Origin: Leucobacter salsicius M1-8
GTDB lineage: Bacteria > Actinomycetota > Actinomycetes > Actinomycetales > Microbacteriaceae
Assembly (NCBI RefSeq): GCF_000350525.1
Contig: NZ_AOCN01000010.1
Coordinates: 1 to 64,000, forward strand
Direction: 5' to 3'
Length of the DNA: 64,000 nucleotides
The position numbers and the translations under genes were made by a program. Shown here piece after piece: positions 60,104 through 64,000 of this stretch. The notes under the pieces are model-generated. The model made no database searches and was not told the origin of the DNA. It saw only the letters and a program-made list of their open reading frames with translations. Each line of letters begins with the position of its first letter. Position 1 is the first letter of the stretch.

Positions 60104-60556
60104 ATGTTCAAGCAACAACACCGCAAGGTGGATGCGGCAGCCAAACACACGCCGGCCTCACCGGCTATCCGAACACCCCGGCGCGAACCACCTCACACAG
60201 CGTCTCGCTACGACGCGGGCACCGGACAGGGAACGATCTCGAGAATCCCTCAGGGCAAGACCCTCGACCACCCCATTCTGGATGGGGCGACCGAGTCCAA
60301 GGTCTCGCAGAGCTTCACCGACAATCCGTTTCGCGGGCGCAGGGACCCCGCCCTTCGTGAGTGGAACTATTCACACGCCCACGATCACGACGACGACCTC
60401 GCCAATGAGCCCGAACTCAGGCGCCAGCACGATGCAGAGGTGGCTGCGCACGCCAACGATTATGAACCCCGGCACTGGTACAAGTACGACCCGTTTCGCA
60501 ACGAACGCAACCGGATGAGGCACATGGGCGACACCGATTCGAAGACGGCTATGTGA
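60104..60556 (+). CDS. Hypothetical hydrophilic protein, His/Asp-rich
   Basis: The 150-residue protein is very polar with no signal peptide or membrane segment. The centre has H-A-H-D-H-D-D-D near residue 90, and the C-terminus is rich in Arg/His/Asp (E-P-R-H-W-Y-K-Y-D-P-F). AACGGAGGATC lies upstream of the ATG, a good ribosome site. I recognise no family; the His/Asp cluster could bind metal. It ends 30 bp before the ISL3 composite. Confidence 0.55.
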   Translation: MFKQQHRKVDAAAKHTPASPAIRTPRREPPHTASRYDAGTGQGTISRIPQGKTLDHPILDGATESKVSQSFTDNPFRGRRDPALREWNYSHAHDHDDDLANEPELRRQHDAEVAAHANDYEPRHWYKYDPFRNERNRMRHMGDTDSKTAM

Positions 60557-60586: not shown

Positions 60587-60594
60587 GGGAAAGT
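60587..60594. repeat. 8-bp target-site duplication, left (GGGAAAGT)
   Basis: GGGAAAGT directly precedes the ISL3 left end. The identical octamer follows the right end at 63788-63795. ISL3-family elements make 8-bp duplications. Confidence 0.8.
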
Positions 60595-60760
60595 GGCTCT
60601 TCCCAGATGAAGGTGTAGGTCGGCCGGGCGCGTCGGTCCGCAGATAGACGTCGAGGTCTCCCGGCGATGGAGGTTCCTACGCCATCCATCCGAAAGACCT
60701 CGACGTGCCCGACGCTACCCCGCCGACCGGCTTCGGCCGCCCTGACCTAACCGCCTTCGC

Positions 60761-60776
60761 GGCTCATCCCAATCGG
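60761..60776. repeat. Internal ISL3-type end at the cargo boundary
   Basis: GGCTCATCCCAATCGG matches the inward-read right end of the element (GGATCATCCCAATCGG) at 15 of 16 positions. It lies exactly where the truncated left IS copy stops resembling the second copy. It implies remains of another, inverted IS end. Confidence 0.6.
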
Positions 60777-60988
60777 CTCTGATCGGGTCTGCTGACCCTC
60801 TCGACGAGAACGCAGCGACATCACAGCCACCCAACCCCGACCGTCCGGGAAGCCGGGGCACGTCACATGAGCTGTGCTGCGGGCGTGTCGAGTGGGTAGT
60901 CCAGGGGCGACGCAGGAGCGTCGACGCGACGTGCTGAGAGGTGGTTCCAACCGAGCGCTAGGACACAAGCTACAGGCATGGCGATAGG

Positions 60989-61930
60989 TCAGGAACGGCG
61001 TCGCTCCCTGCGCAGGAGGGAGCGCAGAGTCTCGGCGTTCGCGTAGCCGACCCGGAGCGCGATCTCGGCGGAGGTGAGGTCCGTGGTTGCTGAGAGGTGC
61101 CGAGCTCGTTCGATGCGAAGCCGTTGGACGAAGCCGAGCGGAGTGAGGTTGAGCGCCGCACGGACTCGTCGTTCGAGGGTGCGCCGGCTGGTGCCGAGCG
61201 ACTGCGCGACGAAGGCGACGTTGAACGGTTCGTCCAGGCGGGCGCGCACGAAGCGTTCGAACTCGACGACGATCGGGTCCTCGTGCCGGAGATGTTCGTA
61301 GGCGACGAAGGCCGTCTGCGACGGACGCTCGTCGATGATGAGGAGCTTGGCGACATGTTGGGCCAGGTCGGGGCTGATCGATCGCACGAGTGAGAGCGCG
61401 AGGTCGATGTGGGCGAACGCTGCGCCGGCGGTGACGAGGTTCCCGTCGACCACGACCATGGTGTCGAGATCGAGGGCGACGGTCGGATAGCGCTTCAGGA
61501 ACTCCGGTCCCAGGAACCAGCTGGTCGTCGCCCGCCGATGATGCATCCGTCCGGTCTCGGCGACAGCGAACACGCCGGTGCACGCCGCGGCGATCCGGGT
61601 GGTCGCCTCGTCGAGGCGCCCGAGCGAGGCGATGACCGAACGAGCATCTCGGCTCTGGAGGGCGTCGTTGGTAGCGGCGGCCGTAAGGGTTCCAAGTGCA
61701 GGGACGACGACCACGTCGAACTCTGCGGACTCCGACAGCGGGTGGTCCACCGACAGGGTCATCGATGCCGTCGTGGTCACTCTCCGTTTCGGTCCGAGGA
61801 TGGCGAGTTCGATCGGGTCGATCCGCGGGTCGACATCGCCGCGGGCTCCGTCGGCCACCCGCACGATGTCGATGATCGACGCGATAGCCGAACCGAAGCA
61901 GCCGTCGATCGCGATCAGTCCAATACGCAT
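60989..61930 (-). CDS. GlxA-family AraC-type transcriptional regulator
   Basis: ATG 61930 (M-R-I-G-L-I-A-I-D-G-C) gives 313 residues. The N-terminal DJ-1/PfpI-like domain has the nucleophile-elbow motif A-A-C-T-G-V-F near residue 115. The C-terminal AraC domain has two helix-turn-helices (V-A-Q-S-L-G-T-S-R-R-T-L-E-R-R-V and S-A-E-I-A-L-R-V-G-Y-A-N-A-E-T-L). It is divergent from a small monooxygenase gene inside the ISL3 composite and probably regulates it. Confidence 0.88.
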   Translation of the reverse strand: MRIGLIAIDGCFGSAIASIIDIVRVADGARGDVDPRIDPIELAILGPKRRVTTTASMTLSVDHPLSESAEFDVVVVPALGTLTAAATNDALQSRDARSVIASLGRLDEATTRIAAACTGVFAVAETGRMHHRRATTSWFLGPEFLKRYPTVALDLDTMVVVDGNLVTAGAAFAHIDLALSLVRSISPDLAQHVAKLLIIDERPSQTAFVAYEHLRHEDPIVVEFERFVRARLDEPFNVAFVAQSLGTSRRTLERRVRAALNLTPLGFVQRLRIERARHLSATTDLTSAEIALRVGYANAETLRSLLRRERRRS

Positions 61931-62037
61931 GACGTAAACAATAGCAATACTGCCGTATACGCCACTCCCCACCGGCCCTCGCTCGTTATACGCTGAACTC
62001 GTCCCACGAAGAACCACGACCTCAAGGAGAGTCCCTC

Positions 62038-62349
62038 ATGTCAACACCCGCATCACTTCCGTATGCTTTCGTCGCCAAGATCGTCGCGGCCGATGGACAG
62101 CACGACGCGCTCGCCGATCTGCTCGCCGGCGCTGTCGCACTCGCCAACGAAGAAGTAGGAACGATTGTCTGGTTCGCGGTCAGGACCCACGCCGACACCT
62201 TCTGGATCTTCGATGCATTCCCCGACGAGGCCGCTCGAGACGCCCACGCCAACGGCGCCATCGTCGCAGCCCTGATGGCCAACCAGCACCTCCTCGGCGC
62301 AGCACCCGAGATCCTGGCGGCCGACGTCCTCGCGTCCAAGCTCCCGTAG
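62038..62349 (+). CDS. Antibiotic biosynthesis monooxygenase (ABM) family protein
   Basis: The 103-residue protein starts at ATG 62038 with AAGGAGA 7 bp upstream. It has the ferredoxin-like ABM layout: P-Y-A-F-V-A-K-I-V-A-A-D-G, then E-E-V-G-T-I-V-W-F-A-V-R and F-W-I-F-D-A-F-P-D-E-A-A-R-D-A-H. Members of this family modify quinones or protect against reactive small molecules without cofactors. It forms a divergent pair with the GlxA-like regulator, and together they form the ISL3 cargo. Confidence 0.85.
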   Translation: MSTPASLPYAFVAKIVAADGQHDALADLLAGAVALANEEVGTIVWFAVRTHADTFWIFDAFPDEAARDAHANGAIVAALMANQHLLGAAPEILAADVLASKLP

Positions 62350-62399
62350 TCCGCCAACGCACGAGACGATCGCGCCCCGCCGAGTCGGTCCGCAGATAG

Positions 62400-62458
62400 A
62401 CGTCGAGGTCTCCCGACGATGGAGGTTCCTACGCCATCCATCGGAAAGACCTCGACGT
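62400..62458 (+). promoter_or_regulatory. Inverted repeat overlapping the transposase start codon
   Basis: ACGTCGAGGTCT (62400-62411) and AGACCTCGACGT (62447-62458) are perfect 12-bp arms around 35 nt. The GTG start (62457-62459) lies in the second arm. The same hairpin is present in the truncated copy (60648-60659 / 60695-60706). It could hide the start codon in read-through transcripts. Confidence 0.6.
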
Positions 62459-63784
62459 GCCCGACGCTACCCCGCCGCCCGGCTTCGGCCGCCCTGACCT
62501 GACCGCCTTCGCTCGACTCGACGGCCTCGGGCTGAGCGTGATCGGGCAACGACTTGAACCGGATCGTGCGGTCCTCGCGTGCCGCGTGGTGGAACCAGAT
62601 CAGTGGTGCCGACGGTGCGGCAGCGAAGGCGCCGCTCGTGACACCGTGATCCGGCGGTTGGCCCACGAGCCGCTGGGCTGGCGACCGACCGTGCTGGAAG
62701 TTGTAGTGCGCCGCTACCGCTGTGCAGACTGCGGACACGTGTGGCGCCAAGACACCAGCGCCGCGGCGGAGCCACGCGCGAAGCTCTCGCGCACCGGGCT
62801 GCGGTGGGCGCTGGAAGGGATCGTGGTCGCACACCTCACCGTCGCCCGTGTCGCCGAGGGACTCGGGGTCGCGTGGGACACCGCCAACAACGCGGTCCTG
62901 GCCGAAGGCAAGCGGCTGCTGATCAACGACCCCACGCGGTTCGAGGGCGTGAAGGTGATTGGCGTCGATGAGCACGTACTTGTCGCCACACCAGGCGTGG
63001 CGACAAGTACGTCACCGTGATCATCGACCTCACCCCGGTCCGCGATGGCGCCGGCCCAGCAAGGCTGCTGGACATGGTAGAGGGCCGGTCGAAGGCGGCG
63101 TTCAAGACCTGGCTCGCCGACCGCGACGACGCCTTCCGTGACGCGGTCGAGGTGGTCGCGATGGACGGCTTCACCGGGTTCAAGACCGCCGCTGCGGAGG
63201 AGATCCCGGACGCGGTCACGGTGATGGATCCCTTCCACGTCGTGCGCCTGGCCGGTGACGCCCTCGACAGGTGCCGGCGCCGGGTCCAACTCGCGATCCA
63301 CGGGCACCGTGGGTTCAGGGACGATCCGCTCTACAAGTCGCGGCGCACGCTGCACACCGGCTCGGACCTGCTCACCGACAAGCAGAGCGACAGGCTACGC
63401 GCGCTGTTCGTTGATGACGCTCACGTCGAGGTCGAGGCGACCTGGGGTGTCTACCAGCGGATGATCGCCGCCTATCGCCACGAGGACCGGCAACGTGGCC
63501 GCGAGCTCATGGAGAAGCTGATCACCGACCTCAGCGCCGGCGTCCCCAAGGTGCTCACCGAGCTCACCACCCTGGGCCGGACCCTGAAGAAGCGAGCCGC
63601 CGACGTGCTCGCCTACTTCGAACGACCCGGCACCAGCAACGGGCCGACCGAGGCACTCAACGGACGGCTCGAACACCTGCGCGGCTCCGCACTCGGGTTC
63701 CGCAACCTGACCAACTACATCGCCCGAAGCCTGCTCGAGACCGGCGGCTTCGGACCCCAACTCCTACACCCCCGATTGGGATGA
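62457..63784 (+). pseudogene. ISL3-family transposase, frameshifted by a perfect palindrome
   Basis: The reading frame has GTG 62457, a zinc-finger-like C-R-R-C-G near residue 51 and C-A-D-C-G-H near 91, and V-I-G-V-D-E-H, the first catalytic Asp region. It ends at TGA 63017-63019. The next frame resumes as V-I-I-D-L-T-P-V-R-D, with D-P-F-H-V-V-R-L-A-G and the C-terminal P-G-T-S-N-G-P-T-E-A-L-N-G-R-L catalytic Glu region, ending at 63784. Between E-H-V and D-K-Y-V the family has W-R-H-T-R-R-G; here two extra bases shift the frame at 62976-62985. Confidence 0.9.
62974..63012. repeat. Perfect 16-bp palindrome at the transposase frameshift
   Basis: 62974-62989 and 62997-63012 are perfect inverted arms around ACCAGGC. 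The right arm encodes the normal G-D-K-Y-V, and the left arm has replaced V-W-R-H coding with its complement. Confidence 0.85.
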
Positions 63785-63787
63785 TCC

Positions 63788-63795
63788 GGGAAAGT
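63788..63795. repeat. 8-bp target-site duplication, right (GGGAAAGT)
   Basis: Exact match to 60587-60594, directly after the ISL3 right end. Confidence 0.8.
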
Positions 63796-63830: not shown

Positions 63831-64000
63831 ATGGTAACTACCCCGCAGAACACTGCACTAACCGTCGGCGACCTCGTCGACCTCGAGGTCACCGGTATCG
63901 CCCACGGCGGTATCTGCGTAGCCCGACACGAAGGCCGCGTCGTCTTCGTCTCTGACACGATCCCCGGCGAGCGCGTGCGCGCGCTCGTCACTGACGCCAA
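63831..64000 (+). CDS. TRAM-domain class I SAM-dependent RNA methyltransferase, 5' end only
   Basis: ATG 63831 follows ATAGGAG. The 56 visible residues form a TRAM domain (L-T-V-G-D-L-V-D-L-E-V-T-G-I-A-H-G-G-I-C-V-A-R and V-V-F-V-S-D-T-I-P-G-E-R-V-R-A-L-V). This is the typical N-terminus of RumA/TrmA-like uracil-5 methyltransferases. The rest lies outside the window. The ISL3 insertion ends 36 bp before this start, so it may have displaced the native promoter. Confidence 0.8.
   Translation, partial: MVTTPQNTALTVGDLVDLEVTGIAHGGICVARHEGRVVFVSDTIPGERVRALVTDA

What the first reader, a model, noticed from the sequence alone, without database searches (positions are those of the whole stretch)
60587..63795. 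ISL3-type composite transposon with its own target duplication carries a regulator/monooxygenase pair
Seen: exact GGGAAAGT octamers abut 25-bp imperfect inverted ends. Between them lie a 166-bp IS left end, 1623 bp with a GlxA-like regulator and an ABM monooxygenase, and an IS copy lacking its first bases. A 129-bp direct repeat (four mismatches) flanks the cargo. Known: ISL3 elements make 8-bp duplications. Inference: the whole 3.2 kb moved as one unit, or cargo was captured by recombination between two IS copies after insertion. Passenger genes inside one IS boundary are uncommon.
Basis: partly seen in the sequence, partly recalled or inferred. Interest (0 to 1): 0.75.

Follow-up and report, generated by a model that had tools for sequence, protein, structure and literature searches.

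The report
Phylum-wide ISL3 transposon carrying gene pair
A 3.2-kb jumping element built from a solo left end, a regulator/monooxygenase gene pair and one insertion sequence has moved as a single unit into many actinobacteria, and its cargo genes mostly stay intact even where the jumping enzyme has decayed, which suggests that hosts keep the pair for a purpose still unknown.

Summary
The 3193-bp unit (60595-63787) lies between exact GGGAAAGT repeats. Its cargo is in 16 plasmid records and in all 80 genome loci returned (of 167 found). Of 42 units with both outer ends, 35 have exact 8-bp target duplications, all different; a second sample added 5 of 7. The window's architecture recurs in 15 other fetched Micrococcales loci with one shared junction; all 13 two-ended copies, window included, have their own duplication.

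The IS is ISL3-family (RefSeq: ISPfr2 family). The ancestral form had a 166-bp solo left end, cargo, and a complete ISPfr2 on the right. In the window's lineage a deletion removed the inner left end, turning an asymmetric composite into a transporter-IS-like unit. Relatives carry other right ends: ISPfr2 at other positions, ~80%-identical ISL3 elements, or remnants.

The regulator is intact in 41 of 41 copies lacking an intact ISPfr2 transposase, so the cargo is probably selected; its function is unknown. The window's transposase is frameshifted and no other ISPfr2 copy was found in its genome, so this copy is probably stranded. Known kind, new variant.

The parts
60104..60556 (+). left-flank gene (150 aa, unknown), outside the unit; homolog directly next to the trmA-like gene in genome G005
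60587..60594 (.). left target-site duplication GGGAAAGT
60595..60619 (+). outer left inverted repeat (IRL) of ISPfr2
   Evidence: 18 of 25 match the right end
60595..60760 (+). 166-bp solo left-end fragment of ISPfr2
60761..60776 (-). 16 nt identical to the right inverted repeat of bare ISPfr2, in inverted orientation, at the inner edge of the left fragment; probable trace of a second IS copy
   Evidence: found with 1-2 mismatches in L003, L004, L005, L007, L008 (not reported for L006 at that threshold)
60989..61930 (-). GlxA-like regulator (313 aa from ATG; DJ-1/PfpI + AraC-type HTH)
61931..62037 (.). divergent promoter region; the ~39 nt next to the regulator start are the most conserved part in native relatives (possible operator)
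62038..62349 (+). small ABM / putative quinol monooxygenase (103 aa)
62384..62385 (.). deletion junction: cargo fused to about nt 38/39 of ISPfr2, inner IRL lost; the same in 15 other loci and in L203
62384..63787 (+). right-hand ISPfr2 copy without its first ~38 nt
62457..63020 (+). ISL3 transposase, N-terminal piece (frameshifted)
62974..63012 (.). 39-nt near-perfect palindrome at the frameshift; less perfect in the relatives
63017..63784 (+). ISL3 transposase, C-terminal piece (DDE_Tnp_ISL3)
63763..63787 (-). right inverted repeat (IRR), one mismatch to the right end of its relatives
63788..63795 (.). right target-site duplication GGGAAAGT
63831..64000 (+). start of a trmA-like RNA methyltransferase gene (PF05958 and TRAM), outside the unit, ATG after a 35-nt gap from the right duplication

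Best explanation
The unit is an IS-derived transposon of the ISL3 family (ISPfr2) that moves its cargo between one outer left end and one right end, duplicating 8 bp of target. It descends from an asymmetric composite: a 166-bp solo left end, a captured chromosomal regulator/ABM divergon, and a complete ISPfr2 on the right. In the lineage of the window a deletion removed the inner left end and adjoining cargo DNA, so the IS could no longer leave without the cargo (a transporter-IS-like unit). That locked form then moved through Micrococcales. Shown: shared architecture, junctions, target duplications, spread, mostly intact cargo. Inferred: the order of events, that ISPfr2 transposase acts on these ends, that the cargo benefits hosts. 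The cargo is most likely a regulator-controlled small oxygenase for a quinone-like or other reactive substrate (family inference). The window copy is probably immobile now.
For: Units with both outer ends: 35 of 42 exact 8-bp duplications, 35 distinct octamers, 0 of 1722 cross pairings equal; positions 4-5 are 97% and 94% A/T. Window architecture: 13 of 13 two-ended copies; same junction in 15 other loci, all hosts Micrococcales, and in L203, which has its own duplication. Relatives keep the DNA that the window lineage lost, and a complete inner ISPfr2. Native divergon without ISPfr2 in 13-14 kb around it in G169 (89% DNA), G303 and G314 (81%). Cargo constraint: pN/pS 0.14 ABM, 0.27 regulator; regulator intact in 41 of 41 copies that have at least 3 kb of contig to the right and no intact ISPfr2 transposase there.
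Against: 7 of 42 two-ended units have unequal flanks (L005, L007, L016, L019, L041, L071, L081), plus 2 of 7 new ones (L204, L219). No experiment shows transposition. The 80 genome loci were ranked by ABM similarity, which lowers the ABM pN/pS and makes its intactness (87 of 87) partly a selection effect. The tree needs 2 changes rather than 1 for the window's architecture, has few firm branches, and does not place the window firmly with the others of its form: its nearest rows by path (L072, L071) have the complete inner IS. The octamer of the empty site is not conserved in the nearest genome. Intact transposases also show a low pN/pS (0.35), so a low ratio is not unique to the cargo.
Confidence: 0.88

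Rival explanations
1. The cargo was captured after insertion, by recombination between two resident IS copies at this site; the unit itself never moved.
For: A 129-bp direct repeat flanks the cargo and could recombine.
Against: The same fused junction is at 13 two-ended sites, each with its own exact duplication. No other ISPfr2 copy was found in the genome.
Confidence: 0.03
2. The cargo is a neutral hitchhiker: the element is a selfish transposon and the gene pair contributes nothing to hosts.
For: Transposons can carry passengers without benefit; ISL3 relatives of the IS without this cargo are common in the order.
Against: Regulator intact in 45 of 47 units against transposase open in 35 of 47 (Fisher P 0.007), and in 41 of 41 copies without an intact ISPfr2 transposase; pN/pS 0.27 and 0.14. 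These copies were all found through ABM or DNA that includes it and are related to each other, so the test is not clean.
Confidence: 0.2
3. The regulator acts on the transposon itself (controls transposase or end activity) rather than on a host-relevant pathway.
For: The pair travels with the element and is conserved.
Against: The same divergent pair is in chromosomes without ISPfr2 nearby (G169, G303, G314), and it stays intact where the transposase is lost.
Confidence: 0.07
4. The copies spread mainly by plasmid or other vector transfer and homologous recombination, with little true transposition.
For: 16 plasmid records carry the cargo; some two-ended copies lack equal flanks.
Against: 35 distinct exact octamers in different flanks, centred on A/T as a target preference would give. 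Vectors may well have carried it between hosts, but insertion was by transposition.
Confidence: 0.05

Closest known systems
ISPfr2 (ISL3 family insertion sequence)
   Same: Transposase domains, both ends, 8-bp duplication; the right copy is ~98% identical to bare 1439-bp elements labelled ISPfr2 family on plasmids
   Different: Carries ~1.6 kb of cargo and a second, solo left end; the window copy lacks the inner left end and has a frameshifted transposase
Transporter IS (tIS), e.g. ISL3-family ISPst2 (2 passenger genes, 2985 bp; passages of PMC6305408) and ISPpu12a (3372 bp, carries a predicted czcD gene; passages of PMC4447125)
   Same: One pair of inverted repeats bounding transposase plus passenger genes
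   Different: Here the passengers lie upstream of the transposase between two left-end sequences, relics of a composite ancestor; different cargo
Tn6330 (ISApl1-mcr-1-ISApl1) and its single-ended derivatives (abstract of PMC5821093)
   Same: Composite that loses IS parts; cargo persists without the IS. [quoted passage not shown]
   Different: Another IS family (recalled: IS30); here an end-remnant is the usual left side and its movement is supported by dozens of target duplications
ISL3-bounded iron-uptake region of Brevibacterium aurantiacum (passages of PMC6579920)
   Same: Proposed ISL3 composite in actinobacteria
   Different: 11.8 kb, two different ISL3 elements, unrelated cargo

Membership tests
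ISL3 insertion sequence family | Transposase with the DDE_Tnp_ISL3 domain | tested here: met
   PF01610 E 7.9e-52 and NF033550 E 7.1e-67 on the C-terminal piece; Zn_ribbon_ISL3 E 1.9e-5 on the N-terminal piece, just under its curated cut-off
ISL3 insertion sequence family | 8-bp target duplication and terminal inverted repeats (recalled as typical) | tested here: met
ISPfr2 | Near-identity to the reference ISPfr2 sequence | tested here: inconclusive
   ~98% identical to elements that RefSeq labels ISPfr2 family; the ISfinder reference itself was not available
Composite transposon | Cargo between two complete IS copies | tested here: not met
   left copy 166 bp only, right copy lacks its first ~38 nt; none of the 86 classified relatives shows a complete left IS
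Transporter IS (tIS) | Transposase and passenger genes inside one pair of inverted repeats | tested here: met
   definition from passages of PMC9330008
Transporter IS (tIS) | Moves as a unit | tested here: met
   13 of 13 two-ended copies of this architecture have an exact duplication; comparative evidence, no experiment
Transporter IS (tIS) | Functional transposase in this copy | tested here: not met
   frameshift; no second copy found in the genome
GlxA-like AraC-family regulator | DJ-1/PfpI domain plus AraC-type HTH | tested here: met
   PF01965 E 2.9e-10, PF12833 E 5.2e-15
ABM / YgiN-like monooxygenase | PF03992 match | tested here: inconclusive
   no Pfam match of its own at E 0.001; many relatives carry PF03992; PDB 2pd1, named only hypothetical protein, at E 3.7e-23
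ABM / YgiN-like monooxygenase | Oxygenase activity on a quinol | not testable with these tools
   needs enzymology

The most novel reading that the evidence does not exclude
A solo ISPfr2 left end fused to the regulator/ABM pair acts as a half-transposon that is completed again and again by whichever ISL3-type element lands to its right (at least three insertion sites, and in L024 an ~81%-identical element), and selection for the pair has carried it through at least 30 actinobacterial genera while transposases come and go.
Probability: 0.5. Interest if true: 0.75.

Novelty: new variant of a known kind. Interest (0 to 1): 0.58.

Why it matters
It gives an example, traceable by one shared junction, of how a transporter IS can be born: a composite loses its inner end and the cargo becomes inseparable from the transposase. 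It also offers comparative evidence that derivatives with a solo end do move, which the Tn6330 abstract left as a possibility. And a nearly identical, intact regulator/enzyme pair shared by so many actinobacteria, without a known function, is a direct lead to a trait under selection.

Tried and rejected
Rejected: post-insertion capture by recombination (same junction at many sites with distinct duplications). Phage carriage of the cargo: no exact match of the left-junction pattern in viral contigs; among phage records only matches to bare ISPfr2, in Propionibacterium phage PFR2 under two accessions. An exact empty site: none found; none of 29 other same-genus loci (L135-L163, the nearest genome G005 included; 53 other genomes were searched) has the octamer, with up to one mismatch, in the 400 nt before the trmA-like gene. 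tRNA gene in the cargo extension: a T-arm-like stretch was seen by eye in relatives, but ARAGORN found no tRNA in 5 loci and Rfam only three weak hits below gathering scores in L040. A predicted structure of the ABM protein: tool switched off. Literature: a search for ISPfr2 listed 3 papers. In PMC6305408 and PMC2909200 the one hit is ISPfr21; PMC6579920 names ISPfr2 in B. aurantiacum; none of the passages shown describes this cargo. 'antibiotic biosynthesis monooxygenase' + ISL3 + transposon, 0 papers; 'GlxA family' + 'quinol monooxygenase', 0 papers; searches listed nothing on it by title (listings only, apart from the papers named). The library lacks most subscription papers. Rows dropped: the tree holds 82 of 86 loci plus the window (L023, L024, L070, L087 left out because the span from left end to cargo end exceeded 2.5 kb). 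One search took 19 of the 24 cargo-bearing genomes plus G022; G829, G802, G720 and G727 were left out because their left end was missing, G699 for lack of room.
Full report
OBSERVATION. GGGAAAGT occurs twice in the window, both times abutting the element. The 25-bp ends match at 18 positions; the 129-bp direct repeat has 4 mismatches. The inner order is: 166 bp of ISPfr2 left end (60595-60760), 16 nt of inverted right-end sequence (60761-60776), a GlxA-like regulator on the minus strand (60989-61930), a 103-aa ABM-type protein on the plus strand (62038-62349), then ISPfr2 from about nt 38/39 to its right end (to 63787).

WHAT THE IS IS. The C-terminal transposase piece matches DDE_Tnp_ISL3 (E 7.9e-52) and the ISL3 transposase model of NCBIfam; the N-terminal piece carries the ISL3 zinc ribbon just below its curated cut-off. 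RefSeq names the homologs 'ISPfr2 family'. Bare 1439-bp relatives on Rhodococcus plasmids (L009, L010) show the ends; L010 has an 8-bp duplication GCGTCAGC, L009 has unequal flanks.

THE SAME UNIT ELSEWHERE. Megablast against plasmids gave 24 records with a match; 7 cover at least 80% of the query, and 16 carry the cargo. A genome scan with the ABM protein found 167 loci encoding a relative; the best 80 were returned, all 98-100% identical at the protein level, the other 87 were not seen. The 80 fall in 31 named actinobacterial genera and one record labelled Vibrio; 7 loci have no genus name. In an even sample of 396 genomes of the window's order (own genome included), at least 24 of the 395 others carry the cargo at 95% identity or more (few candidates were scored per genome and weak matches are cut from the list). 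In a phylum sample of 396, 47 genomes have some ABM relative, but only the own genome and G334 at 99% or more. The regulator's largest protein cluster holds 3200 member sequences.

TARGET DUPLICATIONS. Among the 6 cargo plasmid loci fetched, the 80 genome loci and the window (87 copies), 42 have both outer ends on the sequence. 35 of these 42 have identical 8-bp flanks, all 35 octamers differ, and 0 of 1722 pairings of a left flank with another unit's right flank are equal. Octamer positions 4 and 5 are A or T in 97% and 94%. Seven units have unequal flanks (L005, L007, L016, L019, L041, L071, L081), as expected after deletion or recombination, but I did not show that for each. One of the 5 (L207) has the same octamer as L083, in a different genome.

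HOW THE WINDOW'S FORM AROSE. Relatives show what is missing. In Rhodococcus and many others a further ~490 bp follow the cargo, then a complete ISPfr2 inserted at CGTTTCAG; in Pseudonocardia the extension is 618 bp long and ISPfr2 sits at CCTAATCA. The window, Cryobacterium arcticum and 14 more loci lack that stretch and the first ~38 nt of the IS, with one shared junction (L042 has a further deletion beside it, and L003, L043, L044 and L070 differ by a base or two nearby). The 15 named loci all come from Micrococcales, in 5 families, and all 13 two-ended copies, window included, have their own duplication. On the cargo tree this form needs 2 changes, with 1 in 28% of bootstrap trees and a mean of 13.2 when shuffled. 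The tree is weakly resolved and the window's nearest rows by path have a complete inner IS, so the shared junction, not the tree, is the main argument for a single deletion. After the deletion the only left end is the outer one, so IS and cargo move together or not at all.

RIGHT-END TURNOVER. Of 86 classified relatives, 66 have the left fragment up to IS nt 166 to the left of the cargo, and in 65 it abuts the cargo within 10 nt (L087 has an insert there); L004 has a rearranged left side. The right side varies: ISPfr2 at CGTTTCAG (35 of 86 by exact flank), at CCTAATCA (2, of which L024 holds an ~81%-identical element), at GCCGTGAG (2), at GCTTTGCG (2), the fused form (15 with L042), near-variants of these flanks, truncated remnants, or none recognised before the contig end or at all. 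L024, with the divergent element on the right, and L085, which keeps only nt 847-1439 of the IS, still have exact duplications. This suggests that the left half is re-completed by new ISL3 insertions, and that transposase can act in trans; both are inferences. The inverted 16 nt next to GCCTTCGC look like the trace of a second ISPfr2 that inserted in the left copy and was mostly deleted (inference).

ORIGIN OF THE CARGO. G169 (same phylum, other class) has the divergent pair at 89% DNA identity; G303 and G314 have it at ~81%. No ISPfr2 match lies in the 13-14 kb around the pair in these three. The pair is divergent there too. The ~39 nt next to the regulator start are the best conserved part of the intergenic region across the transposon and three native loci, a possible operator. 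A mycothiol-S-transferase gene (PF04978) lies near the pair in G169 and G303; G314 was not examined for it. So the pair looks like a captured chromosomal divergon, perhaps one that deals with reactive compounds.

IS THE CARGO FUNCTIONAL? Of 87 copies, ABM is intact in 87 (biased, since loci were found with it) and the regulator in 85. Pairwise pN/pS is 0.14 for ABM (48 distinct sequences), 0.27 for the regulator (83) and 0.35 for intact transposases (31). In 47 units (of 86) with the whole ISPfr2 transposase region on the contig, transposase is open in 35 and the regulator intact in 45 (Fisher P 0.007). Of 73 copies with at least 3 kb of contig to the right of the cargo, 41 have no intact ISPfr2 transposase there (some hold another ISL3 element), and the regulator is intact in all 41. 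The copies are related and pre-ranked by ABM similarity, so the numbers show direction rather than strength. The likeliest role is a regulator-controlled small oxygenase; relatives are named quinol monooxygenase, and the closest solved structure, 2pd1, is itself named a hypothetical protein. Substrate unknown.

STATE OF THE WINDOW COPY. The transposase is split by a frameshift at a 39-nt palindrome. The pattern gave 60 matches in L003-L090, 53 of them identical to each other and none with the window's form. Its DNA folding energy is 7.6 SD below shuffles. This is the signature of palindrome completion by template switching (recalled mechanism), unless it is a sequencing error. The right end also differs by one base from the right end of its relatives. 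No other ISPfr2 copy was found in the own genome. The element ends, with its duplication, 35 nt before the start codon of a trmA-like gene. In G005, same genus, homologs of the two flanking genes are adjacent without an element, though the octamer is not conserved. Another genome of the genus, G022, carries the cargo with a different ISL3 element (~78%) to its right.

LITERATURE. tIS are an accepted class and ISL3 examples with passengers are known (passages of PMC9330008, PMC6305408, PMC4447125). Decay of a composite to single-ended forms is described for Tn6330 (abstract of PMC5821093). No paper found describes this element (searches; open-licence PMC only).

VERDICT. Real, correctly read, and part of a much larger story: a new variant of a known kind. 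Confidence is high for movement as a unit, moderate for selection on the cargo, low for its biochemical role.

Noticed in passing
62974-63012: A palindrome at the transposase frameshift that is less perfect in the relatives examined; looks like a template-switch mutation.
   Followed up: partly
L078 (record labelled Vibrio cholerae strain 35D, contig00055): Carries the cargo in flanks of 63-65% G+C and sits beside a Microbacterium copy in the tree; probably a contaminant or mislabelled actinobacterial contig.
   Followed up: partly
H25/H26 (Propionibacterium phage PFR2, 8821-10256): A bare ISPfr2-like element sits inside a phage record, a possible vehicle between hosts.
   Followed up: no
L024, L219, L222: The cargo is followed on the right by ISL3 elements only ~78-81% identical to ISPfr2; in L024 and L222 at nearly the same target (CCTAATCA / CCTGATCA) that ISPfr2 used in L008.
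   Followed up: partly
L004 1752-3039: An inverted ISPfr2 right part is joined to the last nucleotides of the left-end fragment, a rearranged left side.
   Followed up: no
L006 2214-2516: In Dietzia kunjamensis the element sits ~0.5 kb from a second annotated ABM gene next to a formaldehyde dehydrogenase gene; coincidence or functional neighbourhood is open.
   Followed up: no
L130 5539-5895 and L131 4690-5268: Mycothiol-S-transferase genes lie near the native regulator/ABM pair in two genomes, a hint at detoxification.
   Followed up: partly
L040 6931-7017: A tRNA-3'-end-like stretch in the cargo extension of relatives; no tRNA called.
   Followed up: partly
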